A DNA stretch of 56,157 nt from Betaproteobacteria bacterium (GTDB lineage: Bacteria; Pseudomonadota; Gammaproteobacteria; Burkholderiales; SG8-41). Below, piece by piece: positions 2,927-51,587 of this stretch (positions are counted from its first letter, which is position 1; every line of letters starts with the position of its first letter). A program made the translations under genes and the position numbers. The stretch covers positions 1 to 56,157 of the forward strand of contig CANKUB010000014.1 in the NCBI GenBank assembly GCA_947486575.1. Reading direction: 5' to 3'. A model generated the notes under the pieces. That model did not search any database. It saw nothing but the letters and a program-made list of their open reading frames with translations, and was not told the DNA's origin.

Positions 2927-3751
2927 TCAGCGCTGGCAGGCCGGGCAATAAAAGGTCGAGCGCTGTCCCTGTTGCAGACGTTTAATCACTGCGCCACAGC
3001 GAGTACACGCTTTCCCATCGCGATCGTATACCGCAAAATTGCTCTGAAAATTGCCCGTCATGCCATCGCTGCCGACGTAATCGCGGATGCTGCTGCCGCC
3101 TGCGACGATGGCTGCACTTAATGTCTCACGTATTACGCTCGCCAACACTTCACAGCGTGCACGCGTCAGACGCCGTGCCGCGATGCGCGGACTGATGCCT
3201 GCGTGAAACAAAGCTTCACTGGCGTAGATGTTGCCTACGCCCACTACCAAGTGACTATCCATGATGACCAGCTTAATGGCGGCACTGCGATTGCGCGTGG
3301 CTTTGTAAAGCGCAGCGCCGTCGAACGCATCCGAGAGCGGTTCCGGGCCTAGTGCGGCGAACAGCGGATGACTGGCCACGTCGCCCTTATCACGCCCATG
3401 CCACAACACCAGGCCAAAGCGGCGCGGGTCGCGTAGCCGAACGACTTTGCCGTTGGATAACACCAGATCAAAATGATCATGCTTTTCCGGCTTTGTATCG
3501 TGGTTCACCAGCCACAGCCGGCCCGACATGCCGAGATGAATAATCAATGTGCCGGTGTCGCAATCGATCAGCAGGTACTTCGCGCGGCGCGTGAGCGTAC
3601 GTATGGTCAACCCCGCCACGCAGTCGGGCAGCGCGCGCGGGATGGGCTGGCGCATGCGCCGCTCGCGCACGATGGCTTGTTCTATGCGCACACCTTCCAT
3701 CGCCTTGAGCAGGCCGCGTCGCGTGGTTTCTACTTCGGGTAGTTCGGGCAT
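2927..3751 (-). CDS. mutM: formamidopyrimidine-DNA glycosylase
   Basis: A base-excision repair enzyme that removes 8-oxoguanine and nicks the abasic site. It is 274 residues, close to the usual length. After the initiator methionine comes PELPEVE, giving the catalytic N-terminal proline and Glu3; Lys58 in RRAKYLLID matches the conserved lysine. The C-terminus carries the four-cysteine zinc finger (CTRCG...YCPACQR). No Shine-Dalgarno sequence precedes the ATG at 3751. Instead the AT-rich repeat at 3760-3777 lies directly upstream, between this gene and the DUF4340 gene with which it is co-directional. Confidence 0.96.
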   Translation of the reverse strand: MPELPEVETTRRGLLKAMEGVRIEQAIVRERRMRQPIPRALPDCVAGLTIRTLTRRAKYLLIDCDTGTLIIHLGMSGRLWLVNHDTKPEKHDHFDLVLSNGKVVRLRDPRRFGLVLWHGRDKGDVASHPLFAALGPEPLSDAFDGAALYKATRNRSAAIKLVIMDSHLVVGVGNIYASEALFHAGISPRIAARRLTRARCEVLASVIRETLSAAIVAGGSSIRDYVGSDGMTGNFQSNFAVYDRDGKACTRCGAVIKRLQQGQRSTFYCPACQR

Positions 3752-3759
3752 AAATATTG

Positions 3760-3777
3760 TTTTAAAACAAATAGTTA
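3760..3777 (+). repeat. AT-rich 18-mer, copy 1 (15 of 18)
   Basis: TTTTAAAACAAATAGTTA fills most of the 28-base gap between the DUF4340 gene and mutM. On the strand of those genes it reads TAACTATTTGTTTT just before the mutM start. Part of it belongs to a near-palindrome with the following AACTATTT. Confidence 0.6.
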
Positions 3778-3779
3778 AA

Positions 3780-4616
3780 CTATTTCCGTGTGATGGGCGC
3801 AGCCATCATTTGTTTGCCGACATCGCCCGTGAAAACAAATTGCAAGCCGATGTCCGGGCGACGCACCACAAGTTCGGCGTCACTTTGCAGTACCCCGAGG
3901 ACGATTTTCGCGCCACCCTTTAACGTGACTAAGATCTCACGGCCTGTTTTTGTGTCATCGGCAATTTCGCTGCGCAGCGCGCTGCCTTCGCGCCACTGCG
4001 CCACCCAGCGGTTGTAGTCGTCCTGCGAAATGTCGCCAGCCGGTGGAGTGGTGCTCCATTTCTTGCCATCGGTGGTGATCGTAAAGGTCCCGAACGCAAA
4101 GCGCTCAGGCACGTCTACTGGCGCAAGCACGCTGCGCCTTATCAAGGCATTCGCATTCGCGGGCACTGCGGCGGCAAAGCGCGGTTCCACGGTGTAAATC
4201 TGGTTGTGCGTCAGCAGATATTGCTCGCGGGTGACGTTGTTGATCGCGCCAAACAAGAATCGCTGATCATTGATGATGATTTCTGTTTGTGGCGCATCGA
4301 GTTCAAACTTGGCGCTGTCAGCTAGCGGATACTGCGATGTACTTTTCGCATCCAGTACAGCGAGCAGCCGCAGCACCTGAAAGCTGTCGGCAGGCACGTT
4401 GATGGGTTCGGTCAGAAACCAGTCATTGCCGCGCTTTTCGAGCGACGCCAGTGGCGCACCTTTGTGCCGGACGCGCAGTGTGCGTGCGTCGGCAGATTTG
4501 AGTCCTGTGACGGCAACGGTGGCATTCTGTTGTTTGGGCGGCTTCAGCCACACCAATAACCCCAGTGCGGTTACGCACGCGAACAGCGCGCCGAGGGTGA
4601 TCCAGCTTTTACGCAT
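3780..4616 (-). CDS. DUF4340 domain protein, accessory to the Gld-type ABC system
   Basis: A 278-residue protein with one N-terminal membrane anchor (ITLGALFACVTALGLLVWL) followed by a periplasmic beta-rich domain. The architecture and the position directly after a GldG-like gene fit DUF4340 proteins, which accompany GldA/F/G-type ABC transporters. The segment GLKSADARTLRVRHKGAPLASLEKRGNDWFLTEPINVPAD is characteristic. It probably acts as an extracytoplasmic subunit, but no biochemical role has been shown for the family. It lies 15 bases downstream of the GldG-like gene and is probably in its operon. Confidence 0.7.
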   Translation of the reverse strand: MRKSWITLGALFACVTALGLLVWLKPPKQQNATVAVTGLKSADARTLRVRHKGAPLASLEKRGNDWFLTEPINVPADSFQVLRLLAVLDAKSTSQYPLADSAKFELDAPQTEIIINDQRFLFGAINNVTREQYLLTHNQIYTVEPRFAAAVPANANALIRRSVLAPVDVPERFAFGTFTITTDGKKWSTTPPAGDISQDDYNRWVAQWREGSALRSEIADDTKTGREILVTLKGGAKIVLGVLQSDAELVVRRPDIGLQFVFTGDVGKQMMAAPITRK

Positions 4617-4631
4617 GGCAATTCAAAAAAT

Positions 4632-5993
4632 TCAAAACGCCTTGCGCCGCCGCCACCAAACCACCACGCCAGTAATCGCAAACACCAGCGGCAGCACCAG
4701 CAAGAACGTAAATGCAATCAGATACAGCAATGTCTGATCAATATTGATCTGCACGTCCGCTGCCGGACGTGCAGGAATATTGATCATTTTGTCGTCATTG
4801 GTGAGCCAGCTCATCATCGCCACGCCCAGTTGCAGATTGCCGCCGTTGCCAAGAAACGCATTGGCGAGAAAACTGCCATTGCCTACCACCACCACACGCT
4901 GTTGCTTGTCACCTGCTGTGCGTTCAAACGCAGTAGCTATGTTCACCGGCCCCTGAAAATCTTTATCCTTGTCGAACACCGGTTTGTCGTCGAGTTTGCC
5001 GGTTTCAACCCAGCCGCGTTGGGCGACTTCGAGCAGCGGCGTGATACGCCAGCCGTCCCTTTCAGCCGAGCCTATCTGGCGGCTGCCGGGAAACAGCGTA
5101 TTCAGGCGAAACGCACCGGTGATCGGGTGCCGCGCGTAGTTGCTGCCGACCGCAAGCGTGGGCGGGCCGCTGCGCGGTTTTAACGACGGATCAACCACGG
5201 TGCCGGGCGTTATCACGAGGCCCAGAAATTCAGCAATGGGTTCAAGGCCGCGCAACGGCTCCGGGTCGATCAGCCACAACAGATTGCCACCGGCTTCAAC
5301 ATACGCACGCAGTTTTGCAACTTCGGCTTCCTGTAAATCCGTTTGCGGGCTGGCGATGATCAAGGTAGCGGCGTTGCGCGGCACGTCCTGCGCTATCGAC
5401 AGATTCAGGCTCGATAATTTGTAACCTTTCATCTGCAACTGACGACCCCATTCACCGAGATCGTGATTGGCCGCGCCATCGATTTTTCGTTCGCCGTGGC
5501 CATCCAGCCAGTACGCCACCGCCGTGCTGGTGCGGGACAGGCGTATCAGCGAATTGACGAAATTCTGTTCGTTGAATTCACCCAGCGGCAGATGTTCGGT
5601 GCGGCCCTTGTGCTCGATGACGAATTCGTTGGGCGAACGCAAGCCTGCGGCATTGGCGCGCTTGGGGTCGTCGCGTGGATCAACCAGCGCTAGTGCAAGC
5701 TCAGGCTTTACTTTTTGCCACGGGCGCAGTTTTTCCTGAATCAGTTTATGTACATCATTGCCGCTACCGTCTTTGGCCATGGCATAGGCGGTGACGTTAA
5801 TCACGCCATCGAATTGTTTAAGCGCATCCTGTGTGCCTTGCGTCAGCGTGTTGCGCGCGTTGGCGGTGACATCACGCTCTACACGATATTCGCGCGCCAC
5901 CCACGCCAGCAGCATCGCCAGCGCCAGCAGCAGCACGGTATAGAGCCAGCCCTGAGCGAGTAACTGCGTACGAACTTTGCGGGTAATCTGCAT
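4632..5993 (-). CDS. GldG-like auxiliary component of an ABC-2 transporter
   Basis: A 453-residue protein with a membrane helix at each end (about 15-32 and 422-444) and a large extracytoplasmic domain between them. The central part, including ATLIIASPQTDLQEAEVAKLRAYVEAGGNLLWLIDP, matches the ABC-transporter auxiliary domain found in GldG. A positively charged WWRRRKAF tail follows the last helix. It starts two bases after the permease gene ends, so the two are translated as a unit. In Bacteroidetes the homologue belongs to gliding machinery; in betaproteobacteria the substrate is unknown. Confidence 0.75.
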   Translation of the reverse strand: MQITRKVRTQLLAQGWLYTVLLLALAMLLAWVAREYRVERDVTANARNTLTQGTQDALKQFDGVINVTAYAMAKDGSGNDVHKLIQEKLRPWQKVKPELALALVDPRDDPKRANAAGLRSPNEFVIEHKGRTEHLPLGEFNEQNFVNSLIRLSRTSTAVAYWLDGHGERKIDGAANHDLGEWGRQLQMKGYKLSSLNLSIAQDVPRNAATLIIASPQTDLQEAEVAKLRAYVEAGGNLLWLIDPEPLRGLEPIAEFLGLVITPGTVVDPSLKPRSGPPTLAVGSNYARHPITGAFRLNTLFPGSRQIGSAERDGWRITPLLEVAQRGWVETGKLDDKPVFDKDKDFQGPVNIATAFERTAGDKQQRVVVVGNGSFLANAFLGNGGNLQLGVAMMSWLTNDDKMINIPARPAADVQINIDQTLLYLIAFTFLLVLPLVFAITGVVVWWRRRKAF

Positions 5994-5995
5994 CG

Positions 5996-6766
5996 CTAAC
6001 CCCGCAAGCGCCGTGCTTCAAGCTGACGCACGGTAAGCGCCAGGAACAGCGCAGTCAGCAGCAGCAAACATACAATGGCGTAGCTATCGAGCAAGCCCCG
6101 CCCCAATGGCTCGTAATTTTTTACCGGCGAAAATATCTGCACAAATGCCGCCAGCACACCCAGCCCGCGGGCTTGCAAATTGTCGCCGATGTTCTCGCCC
6201 ATAAATACCATCGCGATCAGCACACCGAACGCGCCCAGCGCCGCAACAATCGGATGCGTAGTAAGGCTCGACACATACAAACTCACCGCCGAAAACGCTG
6301 CCGCGGTTAATGTAAGGCCCAAAAAAATACTGCCGATCAAACGATAATCCAGTTGCGTAGCGGTGCTCAGTGACAACGGCATCAATGAAATTAAACTCAA
6401 TATAATCAATAACATACCTAATATCGCCAGAAACTTGCCGAGGACGATATCGGTAATTGAAATCGGCGCTGAAGTCAGCAGCACCATGGTTTGATTGCGG
6501 CGCTCTTCGGCGATCAGACGCATGGCCAGCAGTGGTACGGCGAACAGCATAATGGCGGCAGCGGTAGAAAACGTGGGTGCCGCAACCAGTTCAGTAAAGC
6601 CCGGCGGGCTGGGCAATTGCAGCAGTTGCGGCTGCACGTTGAGAAAATCATCAAAGCGTTTAAGAAAGCCGTAGCCCACGATGATTTGCACAAACGTCAG
6701 CACCACCCACGCGATAGGCGAGGTGAATAGCGACTTTAAATCTTTGCTGGCGATGGTGAAAATCAT
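5996..6766 (-). CDS. ABC-2 type transporter permease (GldF-like)
   Basis: A 256-residue membrane protein with about six hydrophobic segments, beginning MIFTIASKDLKSLFTSPIAW. The EERRNQTMVLLTSAPIS segment is the coupling region typical of ABC-2 permeases of the GldF/NosY kind. Its ATG overlaps the stop of the ATPase gene by four bases (6763-6766), a strong sign of a shared transcript and a two-subunit complex. The usual interpretation is an exporter or mechanochemical membrane complex; the cargo cannot be deduced. Confidence 0.8.
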   Translation of the reverse strand: MIFTIASKDLKSLFTSPIAWVVLTFVQIIVGYGFLKRFDDFLNVQPQLLQLPSPPGFTELVAAPTFSTAAAIMLFAVPLLAMRLIAEERRNQTMVLLTSAPISITDIVLGKFLAILGMLLIILSLISLMPLSLSTATQLDYRLIGSIFLGLTLTAAAFSAVSLYVSSLTTHPIVAALGAFGVLIAMVFMGENIGDNLQARGLGVLAAFVQIFSPVKNYEPLGRGLLDSYAIVCLLLLTALFLALTVRQLEARRLRG

Positions 6767-7743
6767 TGCGGAGTGTCGTTTCGTGTCAGATTGACAAACA
6801 CGTCCTCAAGGCTGGTCTGCGCCGGGCCGATCTGGCGCAGACCCCACAGACGTTCCGCAGCCAGTGCGACAATGCCTTCGGTGGGGTCAACATCCGCTGC
6901 CACGCGCACGCGAAACAGATTTTCGCCCGCGGATTCTGTTTCAACAACGCCAGCAATTTTATTCAACGCGGCGCGTAGTTCATCGATGGCGGGCGCGTGG
7001 TGCAGGCCCACCAGCAAGGTGCGGCCGCTGTGCAGCAGCTTCAAGCCCGCGATGGTATCGGTGTACACCATCTTGCCGTGGTGCATGATCTGCACGCGAT
7101 CACAAATCGCCTCAACTTCCGGCAGTATGTGTGTTGAAAGTATCACGCTGTGCGCGCTACCCAGTTCGCGGATCAGCGTGCGGATGTCGCGGATTTGATT
7201 TGGGTCGAGGCCGACCGTCGGTTCGTCGAGAATAATCACGTCCGGTTCATGCACTATCGCCTGCGCGATGCCCACGCGTTGTTGATAACCCTTGGACAAT
7301 GTGCCGATGAGTTTGCGGCTGACATCGCTCAAGCCGCAACGTTCACGCGCTTTTTCAACAGCGGCGCGTCTGCGTGCGCCGGGCACGCGATGCAGCCGCG
7401 CGGCAAGGTCAAGGAATTCCGTCACGGTCATGTCGCGATACAGTGGCGGCGTTTCCGGCAGGTAGCCGATGTGCATTTTGGCTTCGACCGGCATGTCGAG
7501 CATATCCACGCCGCAAATGCTGACCGAGCCTGCGCTGGGCGCGAGATTGCCGGTCAGCATCTGCATGGTGGTGGTTTTACCCGCGCCATTAGGGCCGAGA
7601 AAGCCTAAAACTTCGCCGCGCCTGAGTTCCAGATTAATGCCATTTACCGCAGTGTGGGTGCCGAAGCGTCGTGATAACCCGCTGGCGCGGATGGTTGCCG
7701 CCGGGGCGGTGGTGGATTGTGCGAATTCTGCGGGAACTGGCAT
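6763..7743 (-). CDS. ABC transporter ATP-binding protein (GldA-like)
   Basis: A 326-residue ATPase that powers the permease encoded next to it. It contains the Walker A motif GPNGAGKTTT, the signature LSKGYQQRVGIAQA, the Walker B VIILDEPTVGLDPNQ and the switch histidine in LSTHILPEVEAI. The last 100 residues form the C-terminal extension common in ABC-2 ATPases. It is the first gene of a probable five-gene minus-strand run (ATPase, permease, GldG-like, DUF4340, mutM). The divergent TPR gene begins about 146 bases away, so the intervening AT-rich DNA should hold both promoters. Confidence 0.88.
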   Translation of the reverse strand: MPVPAEFAQSTTAPAATIRASGLSRRFGTHTAVNGINLELRRGEVLGFLGPNGAGKTTTMQMLTGNLAPSAGSVSICGVDMLDMPVEAKMHIGYLPETPPLYRDMTVTEFLDLAARLHRVPGARRRAAVEKARERCGLSDVSRKLIGTLSKGYQQRVGIAQAIVHEPDVIILDEPTVGLDPNQIRDIRTLIRELGSAHSVILSTHILPEVEAICDRVQIMHHGKMVYTDTIAGLKLLHSGRTLLVGLHHAPAIDELRAALNKIAGVVETESAGENLFRVRVAADVDPTEGIVALAAERLWGLRQIGPAQTSLEDVFVNLTRNDTPQ

Positions 7744-45547: not shown

Positions 45548-46507
45548 ATGACAATAAAACGTGGCGTGGGATGTGTGTTGATGTTGCTGGCAGCAGGAGT
45601 TGGCGCGCAGACCTACCCGCAACGTCCGGTGCGCATGGTGGTGGCCGTGGTCGCAGGCGGCAGCACCGATATCATGGCGCGGTTGGTCGGCGCAAAACTC
45701 GGCGAGCGCATCGGCCAGCAGGTGGTGATTGACAACCGGCCCGGCGGCAGCAGCATCATTGGCTCCGATATCGTGGCCAAGGCGCAACCCGACGGGCATA
45801 CGTTGCTGATGGCATCGGGTTCGTTTGGCACTATCAGCAGCCTGTTTAAAAAACTGCCGTTTGATATTGAAAAAGACCTGGCGCCGGTGTGTTTCATCGG
45901 CACCTCGCCCTATGTGCTGGTGGTGCAACCCACTTTGCCGATCAAAACGGTGGCGGATTTGATCAGCTATGGCAAAGCCAATCCGGGCAAGCTCAACTAC
46001 GCAGGTTCCACCCCAGGATCATTGCAACGACTCGCCGGAGAACTGCTCAAACGCACGGCGGGTTTCGACATGACTTATGTTCCCTACAAGGGCACGGGAC
46101 AGTTGATGCCCGATCTGCTCGGCGGGCGCTTGCATGTGGCGTTCGACAACGTGTTGATACTTACGCCGTATATCCGCAGTAATACGCTGCGCGGAATCGG
46201 TGTCACCAGCGCAAAACGTTCTGTTTTGTTTCCTGAATTGCCGACTATTGGCGAAGCTGGCGTACCAGGCTTTCACGCGGTGGGCTGGTTCGGCGTGTTT
46301 TCAACAGGCAAGACACCTGCTGCGGTGGTGGATAAACTGAACACGGCGCTGGTCGCAGTAATGAAAGAACCAGACATGCGCGACCGCCTAATCGCCCAGG
46401 GCGCTGAGCCACTGGGTGGGTCACCCGAGGACTTGCGCAAATATCTCGCGGGTGAAATCAGCAAGTGGGGTAAGGTGATACGGGAGGCAGGGATTAAGGC
46501 GGATTGA
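45548..46507 (+). CDS. Bug/TctC-type receptor (array member 3)
   Basis: A 319-residue binding protein starting ten bases after the previous gene. A short signal peptide ends GVGAQ; YPQRPVRMVVAVVAGGSTDIMARLVGAKLGER, VIDNRPGGSSIIGSDIVAKAQPDGHTLL and YVPYKGTGQLMPDLLGGRLH follow the family pattern. The ligand loop contains GGSTD. The close spacing implies co-transcription. Confidence 0.9.
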   Translation: MTIKRGVGCVLMLLAAGVGAQTYPQRPVRMVVAVVAGGSTDIMARLVGAKLGERIGQQVVIDNRPGGSSIIGSDIVAKAQPDGHTLLMASGSFGTISSLFKKLPFDIEKDLAPVCFIGTSPYVLVVQPTLPIKTVADLISYGKANPGKLNYAGSTPGSLQRLAGELLKRTAGFDMTYVPYKGTGQLMPDLLGGRLHVAFDNVLILTPYIRSNTLRGIGVTSAKRSVLFPELPTIGEAGVPGFHAVGWFGVFSTGKTPAAVVDKLNTALVAVMKEPDMRDRLIAQGAEPLGGSPEDLRKYLAGEISKWGKVIREAGIKAD

Positions 46508-46580
46508 TGTAGCGTTTGACGGTACCCCGGGTGGGGGATAGATTGCGGGTTGGTGAAAATGTTAAGAAAGCCTGTACCCT

Positions 46581-47603
46581 ATGCGCAATGGCATCGACAT
46601 ACTTCGCAAAACAACTTTCTGCCCGGCTGTCGCAATGGCCGCCGCCGTTTGCTGGTGCGCGACCGACGTGCACGCGCAGGGCGCCGCCAGCGGCCCGGCG
46701 CAGGGCTACCCCAGCAAGCCCGTGCGCTACGTGGTGCCATTCGGTGCAGGCGCCTCGCCCGACATCGTCGCGCGTCTACTGGGTGACCGGCTCACGCGGC
46801 GCTGGGGCCAGCAGGTCATCGTCGAGAACCGGGTAGGCGTCGCCGGTGTTCTCGGCGCGGCATTCGTCGCCAAGTCGGTGCCCGATGGATACACACTGCT
46901 TCAGTGCAATATCGCTTCGAGCGCGATCTCCCTGTCGCTCTATGCCAATGTGCCGTACGATCAGATGCGCGATTTCGCGCCGATCACGCGCATCGGCACC
47001 ACGCCCAATGTCCTCACCGCGCACCCATCGGTGCCGATACGATCGATCCGCGAGTTTATTACCTACGCCAAGGCGTACCCCGGCAAGCTTAGTTACTCGG
47101 CAGGACTGCCCGGTGAGTCGCCCCAGCTGTCGATGGAATTGCTCAAAATGGTGGTAAAGATCGATGTCGCGCATATTCCCTACAAAGTCGCAGCGCAGGG
47201 GGTTGCCGATACCATCGGCGGCCAGATTCCGTTCAATATTTCGAATCTCCCCGCCATGGTGGGCACGGTTCAAAGTGGACGCTTGAGAGGACTCGCGGTT
47301 ACGGCCGCAAAGCGAGCCGCCCTGTTGCCCGCGGTGCCGACGATGCGGGAATCCGGGGTTTTAGACTACGAGGTCAATTCCTGGTACGGCGTATGCGCGC
47401 CGACCGCCACGCCAGCACCCGTGCTCGACAAGCTGTATCAGGATTTCACCGCTGTGCTGCGCTTGCCCGACGTTCAGCAGCGGCTGGCCGAATTGGCGAT
47501 AGACACCGCGCCGAAGAATCCTGAGGAGTTCAGTCAGTTCATCCGCGACGAAATTTTGCGCTGGGCAAAGGTAATCAAGGACGCAGGTATTCCGCTACTG
47601 TAA
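46581..47603 (+). CDS. Bug/TctC-type receptor (array member 4)
   Basis: A 340-residue binding protein with a longer N-terminus and signal peptide ending VHAQG. YPSKPVRYVVPFGAGASPDIVARLL has GASPD in place of GGSTD, so the ligand-binding loop differs from the other members. IVENRVGVAGVLGAAFVAKS, LSYSAGLPGESPQLSMELL and HIPYKVAAQGVADTIGGQIP follow. The 73-base gap before it is the largest in the array and could hold a promoter. No clear Shine-Dalgarno is visible. Confidence 0.88.
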   Translation: MRNGIDILRKTTFCPAVAMAAAVCWCATDVHAQGAASGPAQGYPSKPVRYVVPFGAGASPDIVARLLGDRLTRRWGQQVIVENRVGVAGVLGAAFVAKSVPDGYTLLQCNIASSAISLSLYANVPYDQMRDFAPITRIGTTPNVLTAHPSVPIRSIREFITYAKAYPGKLSYSAGLPGESPQLSMELLKMVVKIDVAHIPYKVAAQGVADTIGGQIPFNISNLPAMVGTVQSGRLRGLAVTAAKRAALLPAVPTMRESGVLDYEVNSWYGVCAPTATPAPVLDKLYQDFTAVLRLPDVQQRLAELAIDTAPKNPEEFSQFIRDEILRWAKVIKDAGIPLL

Positions 47604-47617
47604 CCGGGGAGAGGGCG

Positions 47618-48577
47618 ATGTTTAAAATAATTGCGGTGGCTGGTGTACTGGTGCTGATGGCGCAGGCCGCGTTCGCAGCCGACGTTTGGCCGACACGGCC
47701 GATCCGGCTGGTGGTGCCCTTTTCAGCCGGCGGCAGCACGGACCTCACAGCCCGCGTCATCGCGGAGGGCCTGCGGCCGGTGCTGGGCCAGACCGCGCTG
47801 GTGGACAACCGCCCCGGCGCGGCCGGCAATATTGCGGCGGAACTGGTGGCCAAAGCCACGCCCGACGGCTACACCTATCTGGTGTCCGGCGCGACCATGG
47901 CGGCCAACATGAGCCTGTACCGCAATCTGCGCTACGACTTCATGCGCGACTTCGCCCACGTATCACAGACGTTTTCGTCTTCCAACGTGCTGGTGGTCAG
48001 CCCCAGCCTGCCAGTCTCCAACCTCGCCGAATTTATCGCTGTTGTAAAAAGTGGCCAGCCACCGGTGAATTACGGTACCGCCGGGCACGGCTCGTCGCAG
48101 CATCTCGCCGGGGCCCTGTTCAACCACATGGTCGGCGGCAAAATGGTGCACATCACCTACAAGGGTGGCGCCCCCGCAGCCATAGCATTGCTCGCTGGTG
48201 AGATTCAAGCCATCTTCGCACCGATTATCGAAGCACTACCGCACATACGCTCAGGCGCGATCAAAGCGCTGGCCCTCGGTGGCCGCAAACGTTCACCGCT
48301 GCTGCCCGGCGTGCCGCCCATCAGCGATTTGGTACCCGGCTATGAAACGGCGTCCTGGGGCGGTATATCTGCGCCAGCCAACACACCGCCCGCTATTGTG
48401 AACAAACTGAACGCGGCGCTGGCGAAGGTGCTGACGCAGCCAGCAGTCAAGACGCACATGGCCGAGGCGGACAAAGAACCGGTGGGCGGTTCGCCCGCAG
48501 AATTCCGCCAGTTCATCCTCGCCGATATCGAACGGCTCAAGATGCAAGTCAAAATTTCCGGCGCTGCGGTTGATTAA
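47618..48577 (+). CDS. Bug/TctC-type receptor (array member 5)
   Basis: A 319-residue binding protein 14 bases after member 4. The signal peptide ends AAFAA; WPTRPIRLVVPFSAGGSTDLTARVIAEGL, LVDNRPGAAGNIAAELVAKATPDGYTYLV, NYGTAGHGSSQHLAGALF and HITYKGGAPAAIALLAGEIQ are textbook Bug blocks. GGGGAGAGGG precedes the ATG. It is the last gene before the group II intron relic. Confidence 0.9.
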   Translation: MFKIIAVAGVLVLMAQAAFAADVWPTRPIRLVVPFSAGGSTDLTARVIAEGLRPVLGQTALVDNRPGAAGNIAAELVAKATPDGYTYLVSGATMAANMSLYRNLRYDFMRDFAHVSQTFSSSNVLVVSPSLPVSNLAEFIAVVKSGQPPVNYGTAGHGSSQHLAGALFNHMVGGKMVHITYKGGAPAAIALLAGEIQAIFAPIIEALPHIRSGAIKALALGGRKRSPLLPGVPPISDLVPGYETASWGGISAPANTPPAIVNKLNAALAKVLTQPAVKTHMAEADKEPVGGSPAEFRQFILADIERLKMQVKISGAAVD

Positions 48578-48742
48578 GACACCGGCTGCGAGTGCAGCGG
48601 TAGTGTGTAGCCACTTGGCGGTGGGCGATGGGAATTTCGGTCGAGTGACTTTCTGACGTACTCGCTGGCCACGGCGGTTGAGCGTCGGCGAAGGTGATGA
48701 TTCAGGGCGACTTGGGTGCGATTTGCCGGTTAGGGTGACGTA

Positions 48743-48970
48743 ATGGCCATGGAGCGAGGGGGCCCTGCTGTTTGTAGTGTCTCTGACGAAATGGAAGGCA
48801 AGGACGAGATGACAAAGGCGTCTATTAGTTTGCAGGACCTGAGAGGGAGACTATACGTCAAGGCGAAGGCTGACACGCTTTGGCGGTTCCGGGAGTGGCT
48901 GTATGAAACCGTCGGCCTGTTCAACGGCTATCGGGTTCGGCGCGCCACGCCGAAAGGAACACCAGCATGA
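48743..48970 (+). pseudogene. group II intron reverse transcriptase with in-frame internal deletion
   Basis: The 75-codon frame joins the two ends of a group II intron-encoded protein. The first part (AMERGGPAV, then TKASISLQDLRGRLYVKAKA and DTLWRF) is the known N-terminus of one proteobacterial maturase class. The second (REWLYETVGLFNGYRVRR plus a short tail) is its C-terminus. In full-length relatives about 370-390 residues, with the whole polymerase domain, lie between. The junction is at 48889/48890 and keeps the frame. No enzyme activity is possible. An internal ATG at 48809 is the usual start in relatives. The family match is from memory of its conserved ends. Confidence 0.75.
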
Positions 48971-49005
48971 TAGGTCTCATAAGCTTTGGGGCGAAGCAAA
49001 CAGGA

Positions 49006-49038
49006 GAGCGCAGTGCGGGAAATCCGCCCGCTGCGTTC
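49006..49038 (+). ncRNA. group II intron domain V
   Basis: GAGCGCAG (49006-49013) pairs with CTGCGTTC (49031-49038) in eight base pairs, including the G-T pair of the catalytic AGC triad (49007-49009). A two-base bulge CG (49029-49030) and an upper stem GCGG/CCGC capped by GAAAT complete the canonical hairpin. At 33 bases it is one short of the commonest length, with one T/C mismatch above the bulge. It lies 35 bases after the truncated maturase frame, where domain V belongs. The upstream 165 bases are too short for domain I, so the intron is probably inactive in cis. Confidence 0.75.
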
Positions 49039-49052
49039 GACGTGGCGGGGGC

Positions 49053-49277
49053 TGGAAACGTGGCATGGTTGAGATATTGTGGCACTCGCAAACGAAAGGG
49101 CGAGACTACAGTGAACACAAACATCAACCTACACCAACGCGCCAGTCCTCGACCCTACCGATGAGCGGGATGTGGAAACGGGGTTATGGTGAGGGCACTC
49201 GGGCACCGCCAAACGAAAGGGGCGGCAACAGACAAACTAAACCTACCGCTACCGCGCCACATCTCGACTCTACCGAT
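49053..49277 (+). repeat. two imperfect direct repeats after the intron relic
   Basis: Two units of roughly 110 and 105 bases (about 49053-49162 and 49173-49277) share their order of blocks: TGGAAACG, GGCACTCG, CAAACGAAAGGG, ACAAAC, CCTACC, CGCCA, TCTCGAC or TCCTCGAC, and CTACCGAT. They diverge in between. I believe similar sequences trail other introns of this maturase class. They may be intron 3' parts or target-site material. No gene is seen from here to 49481. Confidence 0.65.
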
Positions 49278-49481
49278 TTGAAGCATTCAGATTTCCCGAT
49301 TGCAGTCGTCCACTGCCCGTAAGGTGTAGCCAGAACTTCTGCAATTACTGATCGGCAACGCTGCGGCTATTCGCCCGCGTTGCCTTGCGCGGCCTTCTCC
49401 ATAATGCAGACCAACTGTGCGCGCACGCGTGACGCCGTGCGAGAATTCACCCTCGATTCCCCACGAACTTCCCAGATCAAT

Positions 49482-51587
49482 ATGAGCGACTTCACCAGAC
49501 TGTTCAATCCACGCGGCGTGGCCATCGTCGGCGCTACTGAAGACACTATCCGCGCTGGCGGCCAGGCGCTGGAGGCGATTACGCGCAATGGGTTTACTGG
49601 CGGGATTTTCCCGGTGAATCCGAATTACGATACGCTGATGAAGCTGCGTTGTTACAAGAGCCTCGCCGATATCGATCAGCCGTGCGATGTGGCGGTGGTT
49701 GCCATCCCGGCTAGGCACGTGCCGGGCATTATTGAGCAATGTGGCGCCAAGGGTATTCCGTTTGCGGTGGTGCTGGGCGGTGGCTTTCGAGAGACCGGCC
49801 CTGAAGGTGTGGCGAATGAGGAGCGCATGCTGGCTGCCGCGCGCAAGGGCGGCGTGCGCATCATTGGCCCTAACTGTCTGGGATTGGTTAACGTTCACAA
49901 GCGGGTGTATACCGGCTTCGGCAGCATTACCAAGCCGCCGATGCTGAAGCCCGGCGCCGTGTCGGCGGTGATCCAGAGCGGCGGTTTCGGTAACAGTGTG
50001 GTAATTCAGACCGGGGCTGCGCGCGTCGGCTTTCGCTATGTGGTGGCGAGCGGTAACGAAAGCGACATTCAGGCGCCGGAGTTGATCAATGCGTTTGTCG
50101 ACGATCCGGAAACCAAGGTGATACTCGCGTATCTTGAAGGGGTAGCGGACGGTCGCGCACTGATGGCGGCAGCGCGGCGTGCGCTGGCAGTGGGCAAGCC
50201 AGTGATTATTTTGAAGGCTGGCAATACACAGCAGGGGCAGCGTGCAGCCGCGTCGCACACAGCCAATCTCACCAGCAGTTACGATATTTTTCGCGCGGCG
50301 TTCAAACAATGCGGCGTGATCGAAGTCACCGACACGCACGAGGCCGGCGATTACGCGCAGTGTTTTGCCTCGGGGCGGCAGGCGCGCGGGCGCAACGTGG
50401 TGGTGATGGGCGGTTCGGGCGGTTCCGCCGTGGGGTTCGCCGATGCAGCCGATGAAATGGGGCTGAAGCTCGTCCCGCTTTCTGCCAAGACCATGGCCGT
50501 TTTGAACGAGTGCCTGCCCAACGTGGCGTCACTGGAGAATCCCGTCGATTATGCTGCGGGCTTTATCAGCGACAAGAACATGCCGCGTTATCAGCGCGCT
50601 CTCGATGCCGTGCTCGCGGACCCTGATGTGCATCAGGTCGGCATGCTGTTCGCCACCACTACAGGCCGCACCATGCTCCATGGCGTCAACGGGGTGGTGG
50701 AGGCAATGAAGCACACCGACAAGCCGATATTGGCGTTTTGTTCAGTCCCGTACGAGGCGGGGCCTGAAGGTTTCGATCTCATCGCTGAACATGGCATCCC
50801 CATGCAGCCATCGCCGCGCCGCGTGGCATATGCCATGGGCAGGCTCGCGGATTACTACGACACGCTGCAACAGCGCGACCGCATCTGCAATCCGCCACAG
50901 CCCAAGGCCCGTCCGCTGCCACTGCTGCCCGTAGGCGCCGCAACACTGGATGAGCACGAGAGCAAGAACGTGCTGCGGGCATTTGGCATTCCGGTGACAC
51001 AAGACTTGTTGCTGGAGGTTGGTGCACCCGTACCTGCCGACGTGAATTTTCCGGTCGCAGTAAAAATCGCCTCTCGCGACATTGCGCATAAATCCGATAT
51101 CGGTGGTGTGCGCTTGCACGTACAAGATAATATTCAATTAAAACAATCAGTTATTGAAGTTCTGGCCAATGCCAAGCGCGCCGCGCCCAAGGCGAACATC
51201 GCGGGCGTGCTGGTGTCGGAAATGGTCACTGACGGTCTCGAAACCATTGTCGGCGTGGTAAACGATGCCTGCTTTGGCCCGGTGGTGGTCTTTGGTCTCG
51301 GCGGCATCCTTGCCGAAACCATACGTGACGTCACTTACCGTGTGGCGCCGTTCGACAAAGTTGAGGCCCTCGGCATGGTGCGCGAAATTCGTGGTGCAAA
51401 ATTGTTTGATGGCGTGCGCGGGCAACCCGCACGCGATGTGAATGCGCTCGCGGATTTGCTGGTGTCGGTATCGGACATGGCATGGCTGATGCGCGAACGC
51501 GTGGCCGAGATGGATATCAATCCGGTGCTGGTTCGTCCCGTTGGTAAGGGTGTGGTGGCAGCGGATGCGCTGGTCGTTTTGAAATAA
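49482..51587 (+). CDS. acetate-CoA ligase family protein (ADP-forming type)
   Basis: A 701-residue protein with alpha and beta parts fused. Residues 1-130 form the CoA-binding Rossmann domain (LFNPRGVAIVGATEDTIRAGGQALEAI), followed by succinyl-CoA-ligase-like domains with ASHTANLTSSYDIFRAAFKQCGVIEV, where the histidine may be the phosphorylated one. The last 220 residues are an ATP-grasp domain (FPVAVKIASRDIAHKSDIGGVRLHV...VFGLGGILAETIRDV...MDINPVLVRP). Such enzymes make acyl-CoA from a carboxylate, or the reverse with ATP gain. The ATG at 49482 is chosen because homology begins there. With the receptor array upstream it could activate an imported acid. Confidence 0.87.
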   Translation: MSDFTRLFNPRGVAIVGATEDTIRAGGQALEAITRNGFTGGIFPVNPNYDTLMKLRCYKSLADIDQPCDVAVVAIPARHVPGIIEQCGAKGIPFAVVLGGGFRETGPEGVANEERMLAAARKGGVRIIGPNCLGLVNVHKRVYTGFGSITKPPMLKPGAVSAVIQSGGFGNSVVIQTGAARVGFRYVVASGNESDIQAPELINAFVDDPETKVILAYLEGVADGRALMAAARRALAVGKPVIILKAGNTQQGQRAAASHTANLTSSYDIFRAAFKQCGVIEVTDTHEAGDYAQCFASGRQARGRNVVVMGGSGGSAVGFADAADEMGLKLVPLSAKTMAVLNECLPNVASLENPVDYAAGFISDKNMPRYQRALDAVLADPDVHQVGMLFATTTGRTMLHGVNGVVEAMKHTDKPILAFCSVPYEAGPEGFDLIAEHGIPMQPSPRRVAYAMGRLADYYDTLQQRDRICNPPQPKARPLPLLPVGAATLDEHESKNVLRAFGIPVTQDLLLEVGAPVPADVNFPVAVKIASRDIAHKSDIGGVRLHVQDNIQLKQSVIEVLANAKRAAPKANIAGVLVSEMVTDGLETIVGVVNDACFGPVVVFGLGGILAETIRDVTYRVAPFDKVEALGMVREIRGAKLFDGVRGQPARDVNALADLLVSVSDMAWLMRERVAEMDINPVLVRPVGKGVVAADALVVLK
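51136..51153 (+). repeat. AT-rich 18-mer inside a coding region (15 of 18)
   Basis: AATTAAAACAATCAGTTA occurs in the ATP-grasp part of the CoA ligase gene, encoding QLKQSV. It is the only good copy well inside a gene and marks an AT-rich dip in an otherwise GC-rich frame. Confidence 0.45.

What the first reader, a model, noticed from the sequence alone, without database searches (positions are those of the whole stretch)
48743..48970. Group II intron maturase reduced to its two ends by an in-frame deletion
The frame joins a recognisable maturase N-terminus (SLQDLRGRLYVKAKA) to its C-terminus (REWLYETVGLFNGYRVRR) at 48889/48890, dropping the whole polymerase domain while keeping the frame. Random decay rarely keeps both termini in frame. 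Either it is a chance deletion or a step toward an ORF-less intron mobilised in trans by full-length copies elsewhere.
Basis: partly seen in the sequence, partly recalled or inferred. Interest (0 to 1): 0.55.

Follow-up and report, generated by a model that had tools for sequence, protein, structure and literature searches.

The report
Fossil intron nested in another intron
The short gene is the dead remains of a self-splicing mobile intron that had landed inside a second mobile intron, and its intact relatives appear to be specialised to jump into the catalytic core of other introns.

Summary
The reading is right: 48743-48970 joins the N- and C-terminal ends of a group II intron reverse transcriptase, about 380 codons missing, in frame, at 48889/48890. 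The ORF is only part of the feature. A domain V follows at 49004-49040, this (inner) intron ends at 49158, and 49159-49273 is the 3' tail of a second (outer) intron whose uninterrupted form sits in a sister genome at 97% identity. The site is the relic of one group II intron nested in another. The inner copy lost its 5' ribozyme half, the outer copy everything up to and including domain V; neither can splice or be mobilised in trans, and no second copy of the junction was found. The "step toward an ORF-less intron" reading fails here; ordinary decay fits. The more interesting result comes from intact relatives: 20 of 25 copies sit directly behind domain V of some other group II intron, and their EBS1 hexamer is complementary to the domain V 3' strand; three of the five copies elsewhere carry a different EBS1 that fits their site. 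This suggests an intron lineage that homes into the catalytic core of other introns. I found no description of that in the papers I could search.

The parts
48740..48889 (+). Inner intron fragment: end of domain IV leader plus RT N-terminus (homologous start codon at 48809)
   Evidence: 82-84% DNA identity to the 5' part of full-length introns in Burkholderiales and plasmids; homology fades upstream of about 48740
48743..48970 (+). 75-aa residual reading frame: RT residues 1-47 joined to 428-454 of relative L008
48889..48890 (+). Deletion junction (1140 nt lost relative to L008 4142-5281; removes RVT_1 and GIIM)
   Evidence: no clear microhomology at the break
49004..49040 (+). Domain V of the inner intron
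   Evidence: Rfam RF00029 34.1 bits, E=1.1e-4, below gathering 40; model R2 54.9 bits, E=6e-13, but this sequence is a training row of R2
49041..49158 (+). Inner intron 3' part; 3' end ...CGACCCTAC at 49158
   Evidence: L014/L016 share the inner end followed by the outer tail; boundary fixed by the uninterrupted outer intron L022
49159..49273 (+). 3' tail of the outer group II intron (everything after its domain V); 3' end ...CTCTAC
   Evidence: 97% to G070:C373, where the same tail follows an intact domain V without interruption
46508..49384 (+). Lineage-specific block holding two extra Bug-type receptor genes (46581-47603, 47618-48577) and the intron relic; right edge approximate
   Evidence: In 12 of 13 sister genomes the orthologues of 45548-46507 and of the ligase at 49482 lie 6-178 bp apart; the 13th, G063, is not testable

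Best explanation
The locus is the decayed remnant of a nested pair of group II introns (a twintron). An RT-encoding intron without an endonuclease domain (inner) inserted directly behind domain V of another intron (outer). Later the outer intron lost everything up to and including domain V, the inner intron lost its first 450 or so nt, and a 1140-nt deletion removed the RT and maturase domains, in frame by chance. What remains cannot splice or move. Intact relatives of the inner intron home into other group II introns because their EBS1 (AACCGT or variants) pairs with the conserved 3' strand of domain V (IBS1 = NCGGTT); insertion separates domain V from domain VI of the host intron, which probably cannot splice until the inner one leaves. 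Shown: homology, boundaries, uninterrupted outer site, missing domains, position behind domain V in 20 of 25 copies, EBS1-IBS1 complementarity. Inferred: the order of the deletions, splicing dependence, and retrohoming as the route.
For: RT ends, junction and full-length relatives. Domain V behind the ORF. Outer tail: the same 115-117 nt continue without a break from domain V in relatives (L022, L023, L025-L027, L033), whereas in the window, L014 and L016 they follow the inner intron's 3' end. Domain V model R2 puts a domain V at the insertion point in 20 of 25 inner copies with a readable 5' end (19 at E<=0.0024, L005 at 0.12), in Burkholderiales, Bradyrhizobium, Sporomusa and Pelosinus. L080 and L091 show two RT genes in tandem across the insertion. 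The EBS1 hexamer at a fixed loop position (from intron nt 215) pairs with IBS1 at 5.21 of 6 positions on average versus 4.10 when shuffled between copies (24 copies, p=5e-5; 11 distinct pairs, p=4e-4); target changes are matched (GCAGTT with AACTGT in L082, TCGGTT with AACCGA in L081, TTCAAG with CTTGAA in L088).
Against: Five of 25 copies (L004, L008, L086, L087, L088) have no domain V at the insertion point. Three of them have a different EBS1, but L008 has the standard EBS1 with only a domain V-like 3' end upstream, and L004 pairs poorly (3 of 6). L007 pairs at 4 of 6, or 5 with G-U. Copies are not independent, so the shuffle p-values are optimistic. The EBS1 hexamer was chosen for its complementarity in L009-type copies before the test, although its position was then fixed for all. 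The L014/L016 host is the same intron family as three training rows of R2. No splicing or mobility was tested. The inner intron's full-length form was not found in the window's genus, so its local donor is unknown. Assembly errors in the window cannot be excluded without reads.
Confidence: 0.88

Rival explanations
1. A functional ORF-less inner intron mobilised in trans by a full-length relative.
For: Both RT ends kept in frame; such introns exist in Thermosynechococcus, where remnants of the ORF's N- and C-termini flank a 1.5-kb deletion (PMC2882425, passages); an ORF-less outer intron exists in sister genome G070 (L033).
Against: No domains I-III; no second copy of the junction; no RVT_1 or GIIM in the own genome, though repeats may be unassembled.
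Confidence: 0.03
2. The relic arrived as one 5'-truncated retro-copy of an already deleted twintron (incomplete reverse transcription from the 3' end) rather than by stepwise genomic deletions.
For: 14 of 18 family matches to the outer tail reach its 3' end, and several start part-way through it with unrelated sequence upstream, a pattern opposite to the 3'-end loss described as usual (PMC4496777, PMC5894124, passages).
Against: No source copy with the same deletion found; the relic sits at the edge of a larger lineage-specific block, which points to recombination instead.
Confidence: 0.2
3. The 75-aa frame is a small expressed protein kept by selection (for example an RNA-binding remnant of the maturase).
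For: The frame is open over both ends.
Against: No family match in Pfam or NCBIfam; RT and X domains are gone; no conserved copy in any relative searched; 75 open codons are unremarkable.
Confidence: 0.03
4. Assembly collapse: the real locus has a complete intron.
For: Other group II introns in this assembly are broken at contig ends (two contigs share an identical 130-bp end).
Against: The window copy lies inside a contig with genes on both sides, and it has no other match in the assembly, so no repeated copy is seen that could cause a collapse.
Confidence: 0.05

Closest known systems
Thermosynechococcus elongatus twintrons and ORF-less TeI3 introns (PMC2882425, passages read)
   Same: An intron family that inserts at one fixed site in other group II introns by EBS/IBS pairing; ORF-less forms keep remnants of both ORF ends.
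   Different: There the site is in domain IV near the ORF start codons of one closely related intron family; here it is behind domain V of introns of different classes. The window copy lacks domains I-III and is dead.
Methanosarcina acetivorans nested introns (Dai and Zimmerly 2003; seen only as described in PMC4424553 and as a title in PMC4649490)
   Same: Repeated site-specific homing into other group II introns, balanced by deletion.
   Different: Homing into related intron ORFs, in an archaeon; not behind domain V as far as the passages say.
Trichodesmium twintron (PMC4649490, passages read)
   Same: Group II intron inside a group II intron in a bacterium.
   Different: Inner intron in domain I of the host, single case, interrupts a gene and splices sequentially.
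Decayed RmInt1-type fragments of Sinorhizobium (PMC5894124, PMC4496777, passages read)
   Same: Inactive group II intron fragments persisting in genomes.
   Different: Those are described as losing the 3' end; here the 3' ends are what remains.

Membership tests
Group II intron (as origin of the relic) | Domain V | tested here: met
   RF00029 at 49004, E=1.1e-4 but below the gathering score
Group II intron (as origin of the relic) | Intron-encoded RT/maturase | tested here: met
   Both termini match the 454-aa RT of L008 (TIGR04416, RVT_1, GIIM); the domains themselves are deleted
Functional group II intron | Domains I-III and a 5' GUGYG end | tested here: not met
   No D1-D4 family match in the window; homology begins about 450 nt inside
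ORF-less group II intron mobilised in trans | Complete ribozyme with the ORF deleted, in several copies with one junction | tested here: not met
Twintron | One intron interrupts another, the outer being continuous elsewhere | tested here: met
   Outer tail 49159-49273 continuous with domain V in relatives; nested pairs in L014, L016, L080
Twintron | Sequential splicing of inner then outer intron | not testable with these tools
   Needs RNA
DV-homing lineage (proposed) | Insertion directly behind domain V of a host intron | tested here: met
   20 of 25 relatives; in the window the outer domain V is lost, but the 3' junction is the same as in L014/L016
DV-homing lineage (proposed) | EBS1 complementary to the domain V 3' strand | tested here: met
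   Relatives only; EBS1 is deleted in the window

The most novel reading that the evidence does not exclude
The relic's intact relatives form a lineage of mobile group II introns whose EBS1 reads the most conserved strand of domain V, so that almost any group II intron is a homing site. It parasitises the catalytic core of other introns across phyla, makes the host intron's splicing depend on its own excision, and switches targets by compensatory EBS1 changes.
Probability: 0.7. Interest if true: 0.65.

Novelty: new variant of a known kind. Interest (0 to 1): 0.45.

Why it matters
The relic alone is ordinary decay. Its family is less so. If the domain V rule holds, it explains how one intron can find safe homes in many unrelated introns: the target is the one stretch a working group II intron cannot change freely. 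It gives a natural set of EBS1-target pairs for studying retargeting, and a tractable system for ordered splicing. It may have been missed because published pipelines drop or miss nested introns (PMC4028801 and PMC8919778 say so in the passages read).

Tried and rejected
Functional ORF-less intron: rejected for lack of domains I-III and of sister copies. Microhomology as the reason for the in-frame deletion: the GGTTGTA shared by both RT ends in L009-type copies was considered, but the window keeps one codon more than that crossover would give, and no convincing repeat remains at the break. A 14-nt imperfect repeat flanking the relic (48600, 49319) was set aside: by a rough estimate about one such pair is expected by chance. 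The first domain V model R1 had its pairs one column off and was replaced by R2; R1 results are not used. Viral contigs gave no relative. Sequence 48590-48740 matched nothing in 74 family genomes and remains unexplained.

Rows dropped: L003 (5' end missing), L089 (its 5' part matches a different D1-D4 family) and L018-L021 (no readable 5' end) were left out before the 25-copy count; L017 was left out of the EBS1 test because its intron is interrupted before that position. From the plasmid hits only part was fetched: for 5' ends 10 of 37 records, plus two RT hits; many of the rest are near-identical Bradyrhizobium copies.

Literature: searches; no description of homing behind domain V in the listings or the passages read. 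PMC3552965 was read only in part 1 of 4 plus a term search. Two central papers (Dai and Zimmerly 2002, 2003) are not held, so prior description there is not excluded.

Full report
Observation. The frame 48743-48970 is real. Its first 49 residues match the start and its last 26 the end of a group II intron reverse transcriptase/maturase. In a close full-length relative the protein is 454 aa (L008), with RVT_1 at 115-328 and the maturase domain GIIM at 353-426, TIGR04416 over 58-414. The window lacks residues 48-427, so both domains are gone. The 75-aa product itself matches no Pfam or NCBIfam family.

Downstream anatomy. Rfam RF00029 finds domain V/VI at 49004-49138 (34.1 bits, E=1.1e-4, below the gathering score of 40). 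Relatives of the same intron end in ...CTCGACCCTAC; in the window this end is 49158. The next 115 nt are not genomic flank but the tail of another intron. The same stretch is found, at up to 97% identity, in 11 other genomes among the 74 of the family searched (12 with the window's own). In the relatives whose match starts at its first base it follows a domain V, for example L022...cacgtccggtt then CGATGAGCGG (L024 shows only the last bases of that domain V). In L014 and L016 the inner intron sits exactly between that ...ggtt and CGATGAG, and the window shows the same 3' junction. The window is therefore the remnant of a nested pair.

What is missing. No D1-D4 ribozyme match exists in the window (gathering scan of the whole window; E up to 5 over 48400-49500), while all 25 intact inner copies match RF02003. 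DNA homology with relatives begins near 48740. Domain V of the outer intron is also gone: the window holds a single convincing domain V (the window row helped train that model, so only the absence of others counts there). The copy is dead as a ribozyme and as a retroelement.

Other copies. No second relevant match in its own genome (one 25-nt chance match at E=0.345), no RVT_1 and no GIIM. This is weak evidence for absence: three further domain V matches exist in this genome, and two of them lie on contigs that share an identical 130-bp end, so at least one repeated group II intron was not assembled. The junction was not seen in 74 family genomes, in 399 order genomes, of which 6 had any match and only the window's own spans the junction, or in the GTDB contig scan.

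Setting. In 12 of 13 sister genomes the orthologue of the receptor gene 45548-46507 lies 6-178 bp from the orthologue of the acyl-CoA ligase-like gene at 49482; the 13th (G063) could not be judged. Between them the window has gained about 2.9 kb: two more receptor genes and, at the right end, the intron relic. The names of these genes are my reading of the sequences; no family scan was run on them.

Relatives and the domain V rule. From the contig scan and plasmid hits I took 25 inner-type copies with a readable 5' end. A covariance model for domain V (R2), trained on 15 domain V sequences none of which lies at an inner insertion point, finds a domain V ending within 3 nt of the insertion point in 20 of 25 (19 at E<=0.0024, L005 at E=0.12). 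Three training rows (L022, L026, L027) are of the same outer family as the host in L014 and L016, so those two are not independent. The hosts differ: D1-D4 matches upstream belong to RF02003 (L014, L016) and RF01999 (L006, L080, L085), among others. As a control, none of the D1-D4 matches of other introns in L005, L006, L014, L015, L016, L080, L082, L085 and L088 has an R2 match directly upstream (read). Exceptions to the rule are L004, L008, L086, L087 and L088.

Why domain V. A hexamer at a fixed position (from intron nt 215) reads AACCGT, AACCGG, AACCGA or AACTGT in the domain V-seated copies and is complementary, fully or nearly, to the last six bases of the 5' exon, the conserved 3' strand of domain V. 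In three copies seated elsewhere it is changed to fit: CTTGAA for TTCAAG (L088), AGTTTA for CGAACT (L086, L087). Fixed-position pairing averages 5.21 of 6 Watson-Crick pairs over 24 copies against 4.10 for shuffled partners (p=5e-5); for the 11 distinct combinations 5.00 against 3.47 (p=4e-4). Local folds place the hexamer in or beside a hairpin loop (5 sequences; modest z-scores of -1.0 to -2.0). I call it EBS1 by position and complementarity; that label is my inference. Copies are related, so the p-values overstate the case.

ORF-less forms. A sister genome (G070, L033) holds an 884-nt version of the outer intron with 5' ribozyme (RF02003, 102 bits) and domain V/VI (RF00029, 44.3 bits) but no RT frame.

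Literature. Twintrons are known in bacteria and archaea (PMC4424553, PMC4649490, PMC2882425; passages). T. elongatus introns target a site in domain IV of another intron and show ORF deletions leaving both ends (PMC2882425). Published surveys report that they drop or miss nested introns (PMC4028801; PMC8919778). I saw no report of homing behind domain V in searches; key papers could not be read.

Verdict. The window feature is an ordinary relic with an in-frame deletion that needs no special cause. Its family deserves a proper survey.

Noticed in passing
G000 contigs C23 (47072-47143) and C160 (9883-9954); L092, L093: Two group II intron 3' ends on contigs that share an identical 130-bp terminus: a multi-copy intron whose body is missing from the assembly.
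   Followed up: partly
L033 (G070:C18), reverse complement 734-1617: An 884-nt ORF-less version of the outer intron in a sister species, with both ribozyme ends present.
   Followed up: partly
L028, L030, L032, L034, L035, L038 and others: Scattered copies of only the last 50-115 nt of the outer intron, mostly keeping the 3' end (14 of 18 matches): a 5'-truncation pattern, opposite to the 3' loss usually described.
   Followed up: partly
window 46508-49384: Lineage-specific gain of two extra Bug-type receptor genes between a receptor gene and an acyl-CoA ligase-like gene that are adjacent in 12 of 13 sister genomes.
   Followed up: partly
window 48590-48740: About 150 bp between the receptor gene and the intron relic with no match in 74 family genomes at E<=1e-5; origin unknown.
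   Followed up: no
L086, L087, L088: Inner-type introns outside domain V carry a different EBS1 that fits their site, as if caught after changing target.
   Followed up: partly
L015 (Pelosinus fermentans JBW45), 3517-7331: A possible three-level nest: a domain V, then the inner-type intron, which itself holds a further group II intron (RF01999 at 4891, domain V at 6620) before its own 3' end.
   Followed up: no
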